DNA of 32,898 nt from Candidatus Onthousia faecavium (GTDB lineage: Bacteria; Bacillota_I; Bacilli_A; RF39; UBA660). Below the pieces are notes generated by a model that saw only the letters and a list, made by a program, of their open reading frames with translations, was not told the origin of the DNA and ran no database searches. Shown piece after piece: positions 5,079 to 14,497 of the stretch. How positions within the stretch are numbered: the stretch's first letter is position 1; each line of letters begins with the position of its first letter. The position numbers and the translations under genes were made by a program. The DNA is taken from the NCBI GenBank assembly GCA_018711135.1, contig DVIS01000055.1, positions 1 through 32,898 on the forward strand, written 5' to 3'.

Positions 5079-5099
5079 AAAATAAAAGTGAGGGAGATT

Positions 5100-6848
5100 A
5101 TGAATAATAAAAAAATAGGTGAATTTATTGCCCTTCTTCGCAAAGAGAAGGGATTGACACAGATAGAGTTAGCAGAAAAATTATTTGTTACGGATAAAGC
5201 TGTAAGCAAGTGGGAACGAGGTTTAAGTTTGCCTGATATTACGGTGCTTGAAAAGTTAGCATTAGAACTTGATGTTAAAGTAGAAGAAATTTTGCATGGA
5301 GAAAGAGAAAATAAGAAGCAGAAAGAAGAAAGGCAAGTTATAAAAAGGGATCAGAAAAGACAGTTAATCCTAATTGCTTTATTAATATCATTTACTGTAG
5401 TATTAATGGCATTCTTTATTATTTTTGATTATATAAAATATCATCCAAGTATTATTAAAATAGGTAATAATGATTATAAAATAAGCAACTATGTATTAGA
5501 AGAAAAAGGTCTTGAGAAATTACAAAATATCGTAGAAAAGTCAGAGAAGGCAACTGCTGAATATAATGTTTCTTATATGGAGATTGAGGTAAATAAAAAT
5601 GGGAAATTAGAAAACTTTACCTTAACAGTTAATTACTTTGATAATAATATGATATATGTAGGACGAGGCAGTTATACTTATGATGATAAAAACTTAACTT
5701 ATTCATATACAGCAAAAGAAGATGAAAAAACACTTTTAGTTGAGACTTATTCTAAAAATAATAATATTGCTAATATTAGTGAGAAGATAAAAAAAATACC
5801 TCTTAAAGAACAAATTAAACTTAGTGAATTAGATAATTATTATATTTCTTATCGTCCTAATACGACTTTAGAATGGGGAACACCTATCTTTGATGCGAGA
5901 GATAATAAAAAAATAACTACCTTAACAAAAGAAGATTATAATAAAGGTATAGGTGGAAAAAGCGATTCTGGAGTATTCTTTGCTATTAGATTAAATGATG
6001 GAAGTAGTATTGCTTCAGGACAACAATATTTGTATGTATTTGATTCAACATTGGAAGATACTCCTATTAATCCTAATTATATGATGGAAACAGATTATTA
6101 TATCAATAATGGTAAGTTGCAATTTACAAGAGATTATGGAAAAACATATATTGATGCTGATATAACAGAAGAAGACTTAGAAGAAACATTAAATTTTTAT
6201 GGTAGCTTATCACTTGAAGAGAATAGCTGGTTTTTGTCTACTAATAACCTTATTCCTATCGCTTATTTCTACGGTGAAGAACCAGTATTGAAAATTTCTA
6301 ATGATAATGGTAAAACTTGGAGTGAACATAAATTTATAACGAGTTCTGAGACATTAGGAAAAGAAATTACAAGAAGAGTAGTTGGTTTTACCTCCCAAAA
6401 TTTTGGTTATGTTTTATTAGGAACTGATTGGACTATGGGGAGTGGAGAAATTAAAAAATTATACTTTACTTATGATGGTGGTAGTTCTTGGGAGGAAATT
6501 CCTTTACCTTTAAATGGTACCTCACATGTTGTATATGACTTTTGTATGTATGATGAATTGGTAGGAGTTTTAGTCTTAAGAGATACACTTGAAGCGAATT
6601 TTCCTCTTGTCTATTCAACAGTATCAGGTGGTAAAACTTGGAATGAGGTAAGATATAGAGATAGTAATTTACCCGATGAGATAACATTCCTTAGTGATGT
6701 CGATAGGATTGAAAAAGATGGAGATACTTACTATATTAAGATGGGACAGGGAGATAGTGGAACTTTAAAAGCAACTTTTAGAACTGGTGATATGATTAGT
6801 TGGTCTTTTGTAAAGACAAGTGAAGAAAATATTCATACAGTAGGGTGA
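5100..6848 (+). CDS. XRE HTH, membrane helix and extracytoplasmic Asp-box (BNR) domain
   Basis: A 582-aa protein in three parts. Residues 6-62 are a Cro/C1-type HTH (LTQIELAEKLFVTDKAVSKW). Residues 66-88 are a charged linker. Residues 88-109 are a single transmembrane helix. The remaining ~470 residues hold several Asp-box motifs of the sialidase/sortilin type, S/T-x-D-x-G-x-T/S-W: SNDNGKTWSE, TYDGGSSWEE, TVSGGKTWNE and a weaker TRDYGKTY. These mark the turns of beta-propeller blades. No sialidase active-site set is evident, so a binding role is more likely. The ATG at 5100 is preferred over an upstream GTG because the XRE family begins with MNNKKIGEF. The protein could carry a signal from an external ligand to DNA, but that is inference. 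Confidence 0.85.
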   Translation: MNNKKIGEFIALLRKEKGLTQIELAEKLFVTDKAVSKWERGLSLPDITVLEKLALELDVKVEEILHGERENKKQKEERQVIKRDQKRQLILIALLISFTVVLMAFFIIFDYIKYHPSIIKIGNNDYKISNYVLEEKGLEKLQNIVEKSEKATAEYNVSYMEIEVNKNGKLENFTLTVNYFDNNMIYVGRGSYTYDDKNLTYSYTAKEDEKTLLVETYSKNNNIANISEKIKKIPLKEQIKLSELDNYYISYRPNTTLEWGTPIFDARDNKKITTLTKEDYNKGIGGKSDSGVFFAIRLNDGSSIASGQQYLYVFDSTLEDTPINPNYMMETDYYINNGKLQFTRDYGKTYIDADITEEDLEETLNFYGSLSLEENSWFLSTNNLIPIAYFYGEEPVLKISNDNGKTWSEHKFITSSETLGKEITRRVVGFTSQNFGYVLLGTDWTMGSGEIKKLYFTYDGGSSWEEIPLPLNGTSHVVYDFCMYDELVGVLVLRDTLEANFPLVYSTVSGGKTWNEVRYRDSNLPDEITFLSDVDRIEKDGDTYYIKMGQGDSGTLKATFRTGDMISWSFVKTSEENIHTVG

Positions 6849-8778: not shown

Positions 8779-8793
8779 ATTAGGAGGTTGCCG

Positions 8794-11217
8794 ATGAGAA
8801 CATACATTAGTTTATTTAGCAGCGCTGGTGTCGGTTGCTATGGCTTTAAAGAAAATAACTTTGCTTGTATTGCGACAAGCGAATTATTGAAAAGTAGACT
8901 TGATATTCAAAGATATAATCATAAATGTAAATATGAAAGTGGTTATATTTGTGGAGATATTACTAAAGAAGAGATTAAAAACCAAATATTTAATGAAATT
9001 AAGTTATGGCAAGAAAAAGAAAATTTAGAAGACGTAGATGTCATTATAGCAACACCACCATGTCAAGGAATGTCATCAGCTAATTATAAAAAAAATAATG
9101 AACAAAGAAGAAACAGTCTTGTTGTTGAGGCCATAAAGATAATAAAAGAAATAAAACCTAAAGTTTTTGTATTTGAAAATGTTAGAGCTTTCATGAAAAC
9201 AATATGTACAGATACAGATAATTTTGATAAAACAATTGGGGAAGCGATTAAGGAAAATCTTTCTTCCTTATATAATATTGAATATAAAGTTATTAACTTT
9301 AAAGATTATGGTGTTCCTTCCAGTAGACCTAGAACCTTAGTAATAGGAACAAGAAAAGATCAAGATTATATGTCACCTTTAAATCTTTTTCCTCTTAAAG
9401 AAGCCCAAATCACTCTACAAGAAGCAATTGGTGATTTAATAAGTCTAGCCAATCCAAATGATTTTGCTCCTAATGATATTTACCATTCCTTTAGAGAATA
9501 TGATTCTTATATGCGAGAATGGATTCATGATTTAAAAGAGGGTGAATCAGCTTTTGATAATCCGATAGATAAAAAACCATACAAGTTGGTCAATGGAGAA
9601 AAAATATTACAAAAATCAGGACATTTAGGTAATAAATATCGTAGACTTTACTGGAATAAGCCTTGTGCCTGTGTAGCGACTAGAAATGATCAATTAGCAG
9701 CGATGGATACAATTCATCCTCAAGATGATAGAGTTTTATCAATAAGAGAATTAATGAGGGTTATGAGTATTCCAGATAGTTTTAAATGGACTAATGAAGA
9801 TGTAACTACAATAAAAGATAAAGAAAAGAGACTGTCATTCTTAAAGAAAAATGAATTGAATATAAGAAGATGTATTGGCGAAGCGGTTCCTACTAAAATA
9901 ATGTTTAAAATTGCCAAAAATATTAATGAAATGTTAGATTTTGCTGATTATATTAATAATAATACTAAGAGAAAAAGTAATATCTATATAAAATCATATA
10001 TAAATGAAAATAAAAATACAACAACAGAGGCTCGAAAAAGCGGCAGCTTCTATACACCCCAATCAGTAGTTTATGACTGCTTAAAAGGAATAGATAATTA
10101 TAATAAAAAAGAGCTTCATATCCTTGAACCTTCTGTAGGGGGAGGCAACTTTATTATCCCGATAATGAATAAATTTGATCAAACAGAGGTGCTTTACTTA
10201 GATATTGTTGATGTTAATAAAGAAGTTTTAGATGATACTTTGAGAGAATTAGAAAAATATAACTTTGATAAGAATAAAATCATTATTAATACTTATAATA
10301 CTGATTTTATTGATTTTAATTTTGAAAAGAATTATGACTATATAATAGGAAATCCCCCATTTTTTAAATTAACAGCGTTAGATAGAAAAAAATATAAAGA
10401 TAAAATAGAATATGAATGTAATAATATCTTCGGTTTGTTTTTAGAAAAAATGTATAGAAAGTCTAATAATATAATTATGGTTTTACCTAAAATATTTATT
10501 ATGACTCCAGAGTTTGATTCTTTAAGAAAAAAATATGAGTATTATAATATAAATACAATAATAGATTATGGAGTTAATGCCTTTAAAAATGTCTTTATTG
10601 AAATATTAGTGATACATTTTACAACAGAAAAAAAAGATACTATCTATATTGAAAATGTTCGTGATAAGGAAAAAAGAATTGTACCTCAAAAATATATATA
10701 TCATGATAAAATGTGGCTTATCTATCGTAATGAATTTTTTGATAACTATATAAAGAAATTTAAGTTAGATGTCTTTGAGTTCTTTAGAGATAGGCAGATT
10801 ACAAATAAATACTTAAAAGAAAAAGGTAAGTACTGGGTTCTTAGATCAAAAAACATTTTAGATGATGGAACTATTATTCATATTAAAGGTTATGATAAAT
10901 ATATTGATGATATAGATCAATTTACCGTTAGTAAATACATAAATTCTAAGACCATATTAATGCCTAATTTTACTTATAATACCAGAGCCACTCTAATGCC
11001 TCCTGATGTGCTTGTAAATGGTTCTATTGCTATTCTTATTCCTAAAAATAAAAAACTTAGTATTGACAAGATTGACTTAAGCATATATGCTACAGATGAG
11101 TTCAGAGAATATTATGCTATTGTTAAAAATAAATCTAAGTTTACGATAAATATAGATAAAAATTCAATTTATTATATTGGGGCAGTGAGGTGTAAGAATG
11201 GTAGAAAGACTGATTAA
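8794..11217 (+). CDS. fused DNA methyltransferase: cytosine-C5 domain plus adenine-N6 domain
   Basis: 807 aa with two complete catalytic units. Residues 1-390 are a C5-cytosine methyltransferase: motif I LFSSAGVGCYGF (7-18), motif IV PPCQGMS with catalytic Cys90, motif VI ENV (128-130), motif VIII SSRPRTLVIG, then RELMRVMSIPDSF and IGEAVP (motifs IX-X). Residues ~405-807 are an N6-adenine methyltransferase: motif X/I region GSFYTP and LEPSVGGGNF, and motif IV NPPF near residue 520. The two would protect the two strands of an asymmetric site. AGGAGG at 8782-8787 selects ATG 8794 over TTG 8788. It is the first gene of a four-gene operon and overlaps the next by 20 bases. Confidence 0.92.
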   Translation: MRTYISLFSSAGVGCYGFKENNFACIATSELLKSRLDIQRYNHKCKYESGYICGDITKEEIKNQIFNEIKLWQEKENLEDVDVIIATPPCQGMSSANYKKNNEQRRNSLVVEAIKIIKEIKPKVFVFENVRAFMKTICTDTDNFDKTIGEAIKENLSSLYNIEYKVINFKDYGVPSSRPRTLVIGTRKDQDYMSPLNLFPLKEAQITLQEAIGDLISLANPNDFAPNDIYHSFREYDSYMREWIHDLKEGESAFDNPIDKKPYKLVNGEKILQKSGHLGNKYRRLYWNKPCACVATRNDQLAAMDTIHPQDDRVLSIRELMRVMSIPDSFKWTNEDVTTIKDKEKRLSFLKKNELNIRRCIGEAVPTKIMFKIAKNINEMLDFADYINNNTKRKSNIYIKSYINENKNTTTEARKSGSFYTPQSVVYDCLKGIDNYNKKELHILEPSVGGGNFIIPIMNKFDQTEVLYLDIVDVNKEVLDDTLRELEKYNFDKNKIIINTYNTDFIDFNFEKNYDYIIGNPPFFKLTALDRKKYKDKIEYECNNIFGLFLEKMYRKSNNIIMVLPKIFIMTPEFDSLRKKYEYYNINTIIDYGVNAFKNVFIEILVIHFTTEKKDTIYIENVRDKEKRIVPQKYIYHDKMWLIYRNEFFDNYIKKFKLDVFEFFRDRQITNKYLKEKGKYWVLRSKNILDDGTIIHIKGYDKYIDDIDQFTVSKYINSKTILMPNFTYNTRATLMPPDVLVNGSIAILIPKNKKLSIDKIDLSIYATDEFREYYAIVKNKSKFTINIDKNSIYYIGAVRCKNGRKTD

Positions 11218-11944
11218 GAAATATGAAAGAGTCAGTTTTAAGAATGGAAAATTTCTTTCTGATAAGTCATATGCTTATGATACAGTGTATTTCTTAACTA
11301 AGTTTGTAAGAGATCATAGTGTTGATGGGATATATTATCATAATAAACTTATTAATCTGTTTAAACTTTATATCGCTGATGTCTTCAATAAAGATGCAGA
11401 TAATAGTGATATTGGTAATTATTATAGTGACTTTTTTCACGTTCTAATTTATGCAGGGGTACTTTCTAGAAGAAATCATGAAGTATATAACATTCTAGAT
11501 TATGAAACGATTAATTATATTTGTGAAAAAATGGAAAATGCTTATATCTTCTTATATATTTTAGTATATTTTACGATGAAAAATTCTGATGCTTTAGAGT
11601 TATATAAAAAGTTTTGTGAAGGAGATAAAGAAGATAAGAAAAAATATTTAAACCAAATACATGAAATATTGTATAGAGAAAATCCTAGTGTAAGAGGTAA
11701 TATTGATGAGCAGTGGGCTTTGCAAAATACAGAATATTTAATGAATGTTTTAAATTTTATTAATGAACAACCACGAATATCTAGAGAGTTAAATATTTAT
11801 GATAATAAAATTAAAGATATCGAAATGATTTCTGTAAATGTAAATGGGAGCAGAACGATTAGAAAGAAAAATAATGCATATTTAGAGAGTTTTGATTATG
11901 CTTATGTAAAAAATGAACTTAAAGATTTAATGATAAGAAAGTAG
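11198..11944 (+). CDS. unrecognised R-M operon protein, 248 aa
   Basis: I do not recognise this protein. It is soluble, largely helical in appearance, rich in Tyr, Asn, Asp and Lys, without a membrane segment or an obvious nuclease, ATPase or methyltransferase motif. It has its own ribosome binding site (GTGAGGTG) inside the end of the methyltransferase gene, overlapping it by 20 bases, and the AAA gene follows after 8 bases. The tight packing says it belongs to the restriction-modification system. It could be a specificity or adaptor subunit, or a catalytically silent partner of the nuclease. Confidence 0.8.
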   Translation: MVERLIKKYERVSFKNGKFLSDKSYAYDTVYFLTKFVRDHSVDGIYYHNKLINLFKLYIADVFNKDADNSDIGNYYSDFFHVLIYAGVLSRRNHEVYNILDYETINYICEKMENAYIFLYILVYFTMKNSDALELYKKFCEGDKEDKKKYLNQIHEILYRENPSVRGNIDEQWALQNTEYLMNVLNFINEQPRISRELNIYDNKIKDIEMISVNVNGSRTIRKKNNAYLESFDYAYVKNELKDLMIRK

Positions 11945-11952
11945 GTGTTAAA

Positions 11953-13230
11953 ATGGATTTTAAGTTACCAGTGCTAAGAAGAGGAGAAAAGATAGAAAGA
12001 TTACCTTTTGATAATGAGTTTATTACTTTTGTGTTAGAACAGTATTTATTTGCAGGGAAGAATGTTTTAGAGATTGAAAAAGATTACTTTGAAAGTGAGT
12101 ATTCACAAACAGGAGCGTTTGCCTCTAAAGTCTTAGATTACTTTAGTCTTTTAGATGAACATAATAAGGGCTTATATAATGGGGAAGATGTTTTAAGTAC
12201 TGCTGATAAATTAATTAAGGAAGATAATTCTCTTTATAAAAATATTGGTCATGCATTAAAAAGAGACTTTAATAACTTTAAAGTAGAATATATAGTTGAT
12301 GATAAAGAACGACTTACAGGTGGTTTTAACAAAATCTATTATGGAGTTCCAGGATGTGGAAAGAGTTATAAAGTAAATCAAGTATTTAATAAAGATGACT
12401 ACCATATAATTAGAACAACTTTTTATCCAGAATATACTAATAGTGATTTTATAGGACAAATTATACCTAAACTTGAAAATGGTAAAGTAGTCTATAAATT
12501 TCATGCGGGAGCTTTTACAGAGGCTTTACTTTATGCTTTGCTTCATAAAAAAGAAAAAGTGTGTTTAATAATTGAAGAGATTAATCGTGGTAATGCTTCT
12601 AGTATCTTTGGAGAGGTCTTTCAACTTTTAGATCGTGATCACAATGGGACTAGTTGTTATTCAATTTTTAATAATTTTATTAGTGATTATTTAGAAGAAA
12701 AAGGTATTATCCTTAATAATATTGTTATACCTTCAAATTTATGGATTGTAGCGACAATGAATACTAGCGATCAAAATGTCTTTACACTCGATACAGCTTT
12801 TCAAAGAAGATGGACAAGGGAATATATTCCTAATATTTTTGAAAGTGATAAAACAGCTTTAGGTTATAAATATAGCCAAAAGTTAAAAAATACAGTGATT
12901 CCATTTAAGGGCTTTACTAATATTACATGGGGTGAATTTGTTACAAGAATCAATAAGAAGATTCTCACTAATAGATTTGGTATTAATGGGGAAGATAAAC
13001 AGTTAGGAGTATACTCTGTTACCATTAATGAACTCGAAGATAAAAGTCAGTTTTTTAATAAAGTTTTAGTTTATATCTTTGATGATATAGCAAAAATAAA
13101 TAAAGAAGAATGGTTTGAAAATATTGAGTCTTATGACGAATTATTAGATTCTTACGATAAGAACTATTTAACAATATTTACAGGTTTATTTGATGATATT
13201 GTAAGAAAAACTGGAGAAACTAATGAATAA
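11953..13230 (+). CDS. McrB-like AAA+ GTPase, restriction subunit R1 of LlaJI type
   Basis: 425 aa. Residues 1-120 are a helical N-terminal domain of unknown fold, probably for target binding. Residues ~125-400 are an AAA+ motor of the McrB branch: Walker A GVPGCGKS (131-138), Walker B with LIIEEINRGN (205-214) where the NRGN is a McrB hallmark, and sensor WIVATMNTSDQN followed by DTAFQRRW. In LlaJI and McrBC such a motor uses GTP to translocate on DNA and bring nuclease subunits together. The nuclease gene overlaps its end by 8 bases. Confidence 0.92.
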   Translation: MDFKLPVLRRGEKIERLPFDNEFITFVLEQYLFAGKNVLEIEKDYFESEYSQTGAFASKVLDYFSLLDEHNKGLYNGEDVLSTADKLIKEDNSLYKNIGHALKRDFNNFKVEYIVDDKERLTGGFNKIYYGVPGCGKSYKVNQVFNKDDYHIIRTTFYPEYTNSDFIGQIIPKLENGKVVYKFHAGAFTEALLYALLHKKEKVCLIIEEINRGNASSIFGEVFQLLDRDHNGTSCYSIFNNFISDYLEEKGIILNNIVIPSNLWIVATMNTSDQNVFTLDTAFQRRWTREYIPNIFESDKTALGYKYSQKLKNTVIPFKGFTNITWGEFVTRINKKILTNRFGINGEDKQLGVYSVTINELEDKSQFFNKVLVYIFDDIAKINKEEWFENIESYDELLDSYDKNYLTIFTGLFDDIVRKTGETNE

Positions 13231-14497
13231 TGGTTTAGAACAAGTAGAATTTAAAAGTACTACGGTTAGTGATGGGTTTGTTGGCTTAAGATATAAGAAA
13301 GATAAGATACATATCTACTTACCACTTGGTTATAACATAACTCATAATAATAATATGGAACTTAGAAGTGATATTTTATTACTTTTAAAAAGTATTACTT
13401 TAGTCAAAAGTTATGACAACACCAAAACAGATTTTGGATTTGATATTGGCAATAAAGAGGAAATGCCTTTTAATTCCTTTCTATGGATAATTAGTGATTA
13501 CTTAACTAATGGTTTATATCAAGAGATTGAAAAAAAATATACGCAAAATGGACATGGCAAAATTAATTGGAAAAGAACATTATCATCAACTCCTTACTAC
13601 GTAGATGATAATCCTATTTTTATTAATCCTTACTATGAAACTAATACCTATAAAAATAATATTATTACAGAGTTAAATACTTATTGTGTTAAAGTAAGTT
13701 ATAAATATATTGGTTTTCTTTTTGGTAATATTAAGATACCAGTTTGTAGTTTAGAAGATGAACAGATAAAATGCAATAAAAGATACTATTTAGATATTAT
13801 TAATAAAGAATTAGCTAGGACTTATAACGATAGAAAGAAACAGCTTTTGATAAATATGAAAAGAATAATTGATACCTCTTATGATAAAGATTCTTTAAAA
13901 ATAGCTTCTTTTGGTACTTATAAATATGAATATGTGTGGGAAAAACTAGTTAACGAGGTATTTGGTACTAAAAATATTAAGATAAATGATTATTTTCCAG
14001 AAGCATATTGGTATCTTTTACATAAAGGTAAAGTGAAAGATAGTTCTAAGCTTAGACCAGATACTATTTTGAAAGATAATAAAAATAATAAAATCTATAT
14101 TTTAGATGCTAAGTACTATAAATATGGTATTACTAATGATATAAAAGATTTACCTAGTATCGATTCAATTCAGAAACAAATAACTTATGGTGATAATATA
14201 GCGATTAATAGTAGTAAATATAATAATATTAAAGTTAAGAATATTTATAATGCTTTTATCTTACCTTTTAATAAAGATAAAAATGAATTTGCGGTTACAG
14301 ATAATATCTGTTATGAAGGATATGCAGAAAGTAGTTGGAAAAAGGTAGAAGATGAAAGTTCTTATCAGAAGATAGCTTTGATTTTAGTAGATATTAAATA
14401 CTTAATAGATTGTTATTATAAAAAAGAGAAAGTAAAAATAGAGGACTTAATTACTTGTATTGAGAAAGTTAATAGTGAGCAGCTTAATGAATCTTAA
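13223..14497 (+). CDS. LlaJI-family restriction endonuclease subunit (PD-(D/E)XK)
   Basis: 424 aa. The C-terminal third has the nuclease core LRPDTIL (Asp280) followed 15 residues later by ILDAKYYKY (Asp295, Lys297), a PD-(D/E)XK site in which the second acidic residue is Asp. QKQITYGDNIA after it is a feature I associate with LlaJI/McrC-type subunits. The N-terminal ~200 residues are mixed alpha-beta and hold no known motif. It would be the cutting partner of the preceding GTPase, as R2.LlaJI is to R1.LlaJI. The start overlaps the GTPase gene (ATG 13223, site CTGGAGA). The gene is apparently intact. Confidence 0.88.
   Translation: MNNGLEQVEFKSTTVSDGFVGLRYKKDKIHIYLPLGYNITHNNNMELRSDILLLLKSITLVKSYDNTKTDFGFDIGNKEEMPFNSFLWIISDYLTNGLYQEIEKKYTQNGHGKINWKRTLSSTPYYVDDNPIFINPYYETNTYKNNIITELNTYCVKVSYKYIGFLFGNIKIPVCSLEDEQIKCNKRYYLDIINKELARTYNDRKKQLLINMKRIIDTSYDKDSLKIASFGTYKYEYVWEKLVNEVFGTKNIKINDYFPEAYWYLLHKGKVKDSSKLRPDTILKDNKNNKIYILDAKYYKYGITNDIKDLPSIDSIQKQITYGDNIAINSSKYNNIKVKNIYNAFILPFNKDKNEFAVTDNICYEGYAESSWKKVEDESSYQKIALILVDIKYLIDCYYKKEKVKIEDLITCIEKVNSEQLNES

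What the first reader, a model, noticed from the sequence alone, without database searches (positions are those of the whole stretch)
8794..11217. One polypeptide carries both a C5-cytosine and an N6-adenine DNA methyltransferase
Seen: a full C5 motif set (Cys90 in PPCQGMS, ENV, IGEAVP) and, after residue ~405, a separate motif set ending in NPPF, the form of N6-adenine enzymes. Known: systems with asymmetric targets need two methylation activities; LlaJI itself uses two separate C5 enzymes. Inference: the target is asymmetric, with a C modified on one strand and an A on the other, so this system recognises a site different from LlaJI's and its two modification activities were fused.
Basis: partly seen in the sequence, partly recalled or inferred. 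Interest (0 to 1): 0.72.

Follow-up and report, generated by a model that had tools for sequence, protein, structure and literature searches.

The report
HpyAV-type double methylase with McrBC-like cutter
The protein that puts two kinds of methyl mark on DNA belongs to a known kind (the Helicobacter enzyme M.HpyAV), but here and in close relatives it sits beside a DNA-reading module that nature has joined to four quite different DNA-cutting machines, apparently without changing the site that is read.

Summary
In detail: window 8794-11217 is one 807-residue chain with an intact C5-cytosine and an intact gamma-type N6-adenine methyltransferase. The fusion is not new. It is homologous end to end to M.HpyAV (HP0054, 823 aa), a documented C5/N6A fusion marking m5C in CCTTC and m6A in GAAGG; Hin4II has the two as separate genes. 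So "C on one strand, A on the other, not LlaJI's site" is supported, by homology only. The unexpected part lies downstream. HpyAV and Hin4II cut with one HNH enzyme; here follow ORF2 (248 aa), a short McrB-like GTPase and a LlaJI-type nuclease. ORF2 is a remote homologue of the N-terminal winged-helix part of HpyAV-type REases, without the HNH. In sister systems the ORF2 domain is fused to McrB (with McrC) or to an unrelated HNH_2 nuclease. The adenine-half recognition region stays more conserved than its core across these swaps; the C5 one slightly less. Best reading: a Type II system that kept its reader and exchanged its cutter. New variant of a known kind; the target CCTTC is not measured.

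The parts
8782..8787 (+). AGGAGG ribosome-binding site of the methyltransferase gene
   Evidence: read directly
8794..11217 (+). bifunctional C5-cytosine / N6-adenine DNA methyltransferase, 807 aa, M.HpyAV family
8794..9948 (+). C5 domain (residues 1-385), recognition region about residues 195-312
   Evidence: PF00145 E 1.2e-47; motifs
10006..11193 (+). gamma-class N6A domain (residues 405-800), recognition region about residues 630-797
   Evidence: GSFYTP, LEPSVGGGNF, NPPF; PDLC03382 E 9e-56
11198..11944 (+). ORF2, 248 aa, winged-helix protein homologous to the N-terminal (recognition) part of HpyAV-type HNH REases; no nuclease domain; inferred specificity subunit
   Evidence: fused to McrB in L069-L071 and to HNH_2 in L068
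11953..13230 (+). R1, McrB/LlaJI.R1-like AAA+ GTPase, 425 aa, with a short N-terminus (Walker A at residue 131, against 271 in LlaJI)
13223..14497 (+). R2, LlaJI-type nuclease subunit, 424 aa, PD...DAK motif
   Evidence: PF09563 E 5e-40; PDLC03549 2.8e-53; motifs

Best explanation
The four genes 8794-14497 form one Type II restriction-modification operon. The 807-aa enzyme is an M.HpyAV-family bifunctional methyltransferase: its C5 half marks a C in one strand and its N6A half an A in the other strand of an asymmetric site, most likely CCTTC/GAAGG. Restriction is done by a three-subunit complex: ORF2 reads the unmodified site (it is the recognition half of an HpyAV-type REase without the HNH half), R1 is an McrB-like GTPase motor that has no large N-terminal reading domain of its own, and R2 is the PD-(D/E)XK nuclease. 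Shown here: membership of the methylase in the M.HpyAV family, intact motifs, operon layout, homology of ORF2 to the HpyAV-type REase N-terminus, and fusion of the same module to other cutters in relatives. Inferred: the exact target, that ORF2 reads it, and that R1 and R2 cut where ORF2 binds.
For: Methylase: end-to-end match to an 823-position model, the length of M.HpyAV, E 5.9e-170; models of 387 and 445 positions, the lengths of M1/M2.Hin4II, match the halves; 40% identity over 838 columns to the 822-aa MTase of a Helicobacter-family genome whose next gene carries the published HpyAV HNH spacing. ORF2: profile-profile E 1e-9 to 6e-11, score 59-74, against at most 21.6 in 20 shuffles and at most 18.6 for 15 LlaJI R1 N-termini; a scan of 392 whole genomes with the ORF2 profile hit 7, of which 4 are HpyAV-type REase genes beside the methylase and 3 are ORF2 itself or ORF2-McrB; same order of predicted structural elements. 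Fusions: ORF2-McrB + McrC (L069-L071), ORF2-HNH_2 (L068). R1 lacks the N-terminal extension seen in 15 other LlaJI systems; LlaI and BsuMI are known three-gene cassettes with short R1 (PMC1459862). Recognition regions stay conserved when the cutter changes: N6A region 65-66% against core 40-42% for McrB-linked relatives, 41-46% against 29-39% for HNH-linked ones.
Against: No activity, methylome or binding data. The C5 recognition region is slightly less conserved than the C5 core in HNH-linked relatives (47-54% against 57-64%), so a small change of target is possible. ORF2 evolves faster than the other cassette genes (dN/dS 0.41 against 0.06-0.14). Its model is of moderate quality (pLDDT 71), residues 189-227 are unresolved, and PDB matches are weak (best Z 6.6; FokI recognition part Z 5.4). 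The LlaJI-type form is seen in one lineage only (window and L066, 90-95% identical DNA).
Confidence: 0.72

Rival explanations
1. Same operon, but the target differs from CCTTC: the family keeps C-on-one-strand, A-on-the-other chemistry while the exact sequence has drifted (for example to a related 5-6 bp site).
For: Only 40% identity to the Helicobacter enzyme; C5 recognition region 47-54% identical to HNH-linked relatives, below the core; the 2010 authors say only that homologues may share CCTTC.
Against: N6A recognition region is more conserved than its core in every relative compared, and the C5 one equals its core inside the ORF2 clade.
Confidence: 0.3
2. ORF2 is not the specificity subunit but a decayed leftover of an HpyAV-type REase; R1 and R2 find the site by themselves.
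For: ORF2 has the highest dN/dS in the operon (0.41) and has no nuclease domain.
Against: dN/dS is still below 1; the same domain is fused in frame to a McrB GTPase and to an HNH_2 nuclease in sister lineages; R1 lacks the N-terminal part that reads DNA in LlaJI.
Confidence: 0.12
3. The methylase and the McrBC-like cutter are two unrelated neighbouring systems: a stand-alone HpyAV-type methylase next to a LlaJI-type restriction cassette.
For: The methylase has a higher dS (0.37) than ORF2, R1 and R2 (0.12-0.17) between window and L066, so its history differs somewhat.
Against: Overlapping or nearly touching genes on one strand (11198 lies inside the methylase gene; 8 bp gap before R1; R2 starts inside R1); methylase followed by ORF2 domain recurs in every member of the clade; no other methylase gene lies in the cassette.
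Confidence: 0.06

Closest known systems
HpyAV (Helicobacter pylori 26695, HP0053/HP0054; PMC2816704)
   Same: Single C5+N6A methyltransferase of about 820 aa, same domain order, homologous along its whole length; R gene downstream whose N-terminal half is homologous to ORF2
   Different: HpyAV cuts with one 419-aa HNH enzyme; here the HNH is absent and the cutter is a GTPase plus a PD-(D/E)XK nuclease
Hin4II (Haemophilus influenzae)
   Same: Same two methylating activities; isoschizomer of HpyAV (CCTTC)
   Different: M1 and M2 are separate genes; HNH REase
LlaJI (Lactococcus pNP40; PMC1459862)
   Same: R1 (41% identical over the GTPase part) and R2 (32%)
   Different: LlaJI has two C5 methylases, target GACGC/GCGTC, and an R1 with about 270 residues before the GTPase that include the site-reading part
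LlaI and BsuMI three-gene restriction cassettes
   Same: Short McrB-like R1 (337, 343 aa) plus a third gene
   Different: The ORF upstream of the GTPase gene in the LlaI-like locus L158 shows no similarity to ORF2; BsuMI was not examined here
McrBC
   Same: GTPase plus nuclease; sister systems L069-L071 use a classic McrC (PF10117)
   Different: McrBC cuts methylated DNA and has no partner methylase
Alw26I / Eco31I / Esp3I methylases
   Same: m5C and m6A on opposite strands of an asymmetric site
   Different: Their C5 enzymes are circularly permuted (PMC5944983); this one is in the normal order

Membership tests
M.HpyAV (fused C5-N6A) methyltransferases | C5 domain followed by a gamma N6A domain in one chain of about 810-860 aa, homologous along its whole length | tested here: met
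   PDLC03277 (823 positions) covers residues 3-800, E 5.9e-170; 40% over 838 columns to the Helicobacter homologue
M.HpyAV (fused C5-N6A) methyltransferases | Intact catalytic motifs in both domains | tested here: met
M.HpyAV (fused C5-N6A) methyltransferases | m5C in CCTTC and m6A in GAAGG | not testable with these tools
   needs a methylome; recognition regions conserved
HpyAV restriction-modification system | R gene with an HNH site, H-H-x15-N-x8-H (H294 H295 N311 H320) | tested here: not met
   Present in relatives (H300 H301 N317 H326 in L078); ORF2 ends before the region that would hold it
LlaJI-type restriction systems | McrB-like R1 and RE_LlaJI R2 with PD...(D/E)XK | tested here: met
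   PF09563 E 5e-40, PDLC03547 2.7e-52, PDLC03549 2.8e-53; motifs
LlaJI-type restriction systems | R1 carries the sequence-reading N-terminal domain | tested here: not met
   Walker A at residue 131 against 180-551 in seven other LlaJI-type R1 proteins
LlaJI-type restriction systems | Two separate C5 methylases | tested here: not met
   one fused C5-N6A enzyme
FokI-type recognition domain (for ORF2) | Winged-helix recognition fold | tested here: inconclusive
   Z 5.4 over 170 residues, within the range of common arrangements

The most novel reading that the evidence does not exclude
Probability: 0.6. Interest if true: 0.65.

Novelty: new variant of a known kind. Interest (0 to 1): 0.47.

Why it matters
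How LlaJI-type and McrBC-type machines find a site, and what their GTPase motor adds, has been hard to study: purified LlaJI subunits showed neither GTPase nor cleavage activity in vitro (PMC1459862). Here nature offers matched systems with homologous methylase and reader but either a simple HNH cutter or a GTP-driven one. If the site is the same, one can ask directly what the motor changes: cut position, need for two sites, strength against phage. It also shows where the specificity subunit of a three-gene cassette may have come from.

Tried and rejected
(1) That the fusion itself is new: rejected. (2) That it belongs with the Alw26I/Eco31I group: rejected, those C5 enzymes are permuted. (3) XhoI-like specificity part in BsuMI as a precedent: the PF04555 search rang nowhere, so it says nothing. 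(4) LlaI's upstream ORF as an ORF2 or FokI relative: no similarity; the BsuMI and LlaJI.R1 structure papers are not held. (5) CCTTC depletion or a site in the promoter: 32 sites against 38 expected, none between 8718 and 8794, uninformative. (6) ORF2 in viral contigs: none found. (7) Foldseek against PDB for ORF2 and for the HNH enzyme: no significant match. (8) A published link of HpyAV to McrBC: the searches found only papers that name both, which I did not read for it in full; the library lacks most subscription journals, so priority is not established.

Full report
OBSERVATION. The 807-residue frame at 8794-11217 is real, has a strong ribosome-binding site, and carries a complete C5 motif set followed by a gamma-class N6A set. 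A close relative from another assembly has the same frame at 95% identity, so it is not a sequencing artefact.

THE FUSION IS KNOWN. A PADLOC model of 823 positions covers residues 3-800 at 5.9e-170, and models of 387 and 445 positions cover the two halves. These are the lengths given for M.HpyAV, M1.Hin4II and M2.Hin4II (PMC2816704); that the models derive from these enzymes is my inference from the lengths. That paper states that M.HpyAV is a true fusion of a C5 and an N6A enzyme and lists homologues that are fused too. SMRT sequencing of H. pylori 26695 found m5C at 1198 of 1304 CCTTC sites and m6A at 1252 of 1304 on the other strand (PMC3936762). To test kinship directly I searched the family of Helicobacter bilis and took a 1.6-Mb genome (G565): its 822-aa methylase is 40% identical to the window's over 838 columns, and the next gene ends in the HpyAV HNH pattern.

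THE NEIGHBOURS. In relatives from plasmids, phage contigs and genomes of several phyla, the gene after the methylase is an HpyAV-type HNH enzyme of about 410 aa. In 18 aligned examples the catalytic residues H-H, N, H keep the published spacing (H294 H295 N311 H320 in HpyAV; H300 H301 N317 H326 in L078). In the window it is not there. Instead come ORF2 (no family in Pfam, NCBIfam or PADLOC), R1 (McrB-like) and R2 (RE_LlaJI, 5e-40). R1 and R2 keep their GTPase and PD...(D/E)XK motifs.

ORF2. It resembles the N-terminal 250 residues of the HpyAV-type HNH enzymes: BLASTP 2e-7; profile-profile E 1e-9 to 6e-11. Controls: 20 column shuffles and the reversed profile scored at most 21.6 against 59-74; 15 LlaJI R1 N-termini at most 18.6. 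A scan of 392 whole genomes with the ORF2 profile alone gave seven hits: three are ORF2 or ORF2-McrB, and the four weak ones are HpyAV-type REase genes beside the methylase. AlphaFold models of ORF2 (pLDDT 71) and of an HNH enzyme (pLDDT 87) show the same order of helices and a two-strand wing; both match winged-helix domains, but weakly.

FOUR CUTTERS. A genome scan with the methylase found sister systems. L069, L070 and L071: the ORF2 domain is the N-terminus of a 555-570 aa McrB-like GTPase, followed by a McrC (PF10117, 3.8e-61 for L071). L068: the ORF2 domain (42% identical) is followed by HNH_2 (PF13391, 2.4e-8), which is not similar to the HpyAV HNH. Window and L066: ORF2 is a gene of its own, with R1 and R2. 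In the methylase tree the ORF2-bearing rows form one fully supported group of seven opposite 23 HpyAV-type rows, and its three cutters fall on separate sub-branches. The root is not known, so the direction of exchange is not shown. Two split methylases lie at separate places among the HpyAV-type rows.

SAME SITE? Within the N6A half, the recognition region is 65-66% identical to McrB-linked relatives against 40-42% for the core, and 41-46% against 29-39% for HNH-linked ones; within the C5 half it is about equal to the core inside the clade and somewhat lower outside. This argues for a conserved target but is not proof.

OTHER LlaJI SYSTEMS. In 15 other LlaJI-type loci from the same class R1 has 170-530 residues before the GTPase match, and the methylases recognised nearby by this comparison are C5 enzymes. 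The window's R1 has Walker A at residue 131. O'Driscoll and colleagues noted that LlaI and BsuMI have short R1 proteins in three-gene cassettes, so the layout has a precedent; the relation of the third gene to an HpyAV-type REase is what is added here.

ACCESSORY CHARACTER. Only two of 31 genomes of the genus carry the fused methylase. In one relative without it, the same YjbR gene and response regulator flank about 3.5 kb of other sequence.

SELECTION. Between the window and L066 all cassette genes have dN/dS below 1 (methylase 0.06, R1 0.10, R2 0.14, ORF2 0.41); ORF2 is the least constrained, which fits either a DNA-reading part under change or relaxed constraint.

LIMITS. No wet data; the LlaJI-type form is known from one lineage; priority could be checked only in open-access papers.

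Noticed in passing
L121 3151-4371 and 5016-6260: Two different HpyAV-type HNH REase genes follow one fused methylase in a viral contig.
   Followed up: no
L124 3922-6155: Two tandem C5 methylases, both about 45-48% identical to the window's C5 half, with no N6A half nearby.
   Followed up: partly
L087, L088, L090, L093 (Prevotella and relatives); L091; L123 7001-8161 (viral contig): C5-half relatives (57-61% identical) without an N6A partner; the Prevotella ones have about 130 extra C-terminal residues, the viral one looks like an orphan that could protect phage DNA.
   Followed up: partly
L155 3498-4596: In this Helicobacter-family genome the HpyAV-type REase reads as a shortened frame of 281 aa after an intact methylase; the gene looks broken or phase-variable.
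   Followed up: no
window 8794-14497 against L066: dS of the methylase (0.37) is about three times that of ORF2, R1 and R2 (0.12-0.17) and far above that of the genes downstream (0.02-0.03), which suggests local recombination.
   Followed up: partly
L158 2131-7409: A LlaI-like cassette with the adenine methylase in fragments while the 337-aa GTPase and the 464-aa nuclease frames are intact.
   Followed up: partly
window 5088-6848: Helix-turn-helix N-terminus on a long C-terminal part with weak BNR/sortilin-like repeat matches; an odd combination.
   Followed up: no
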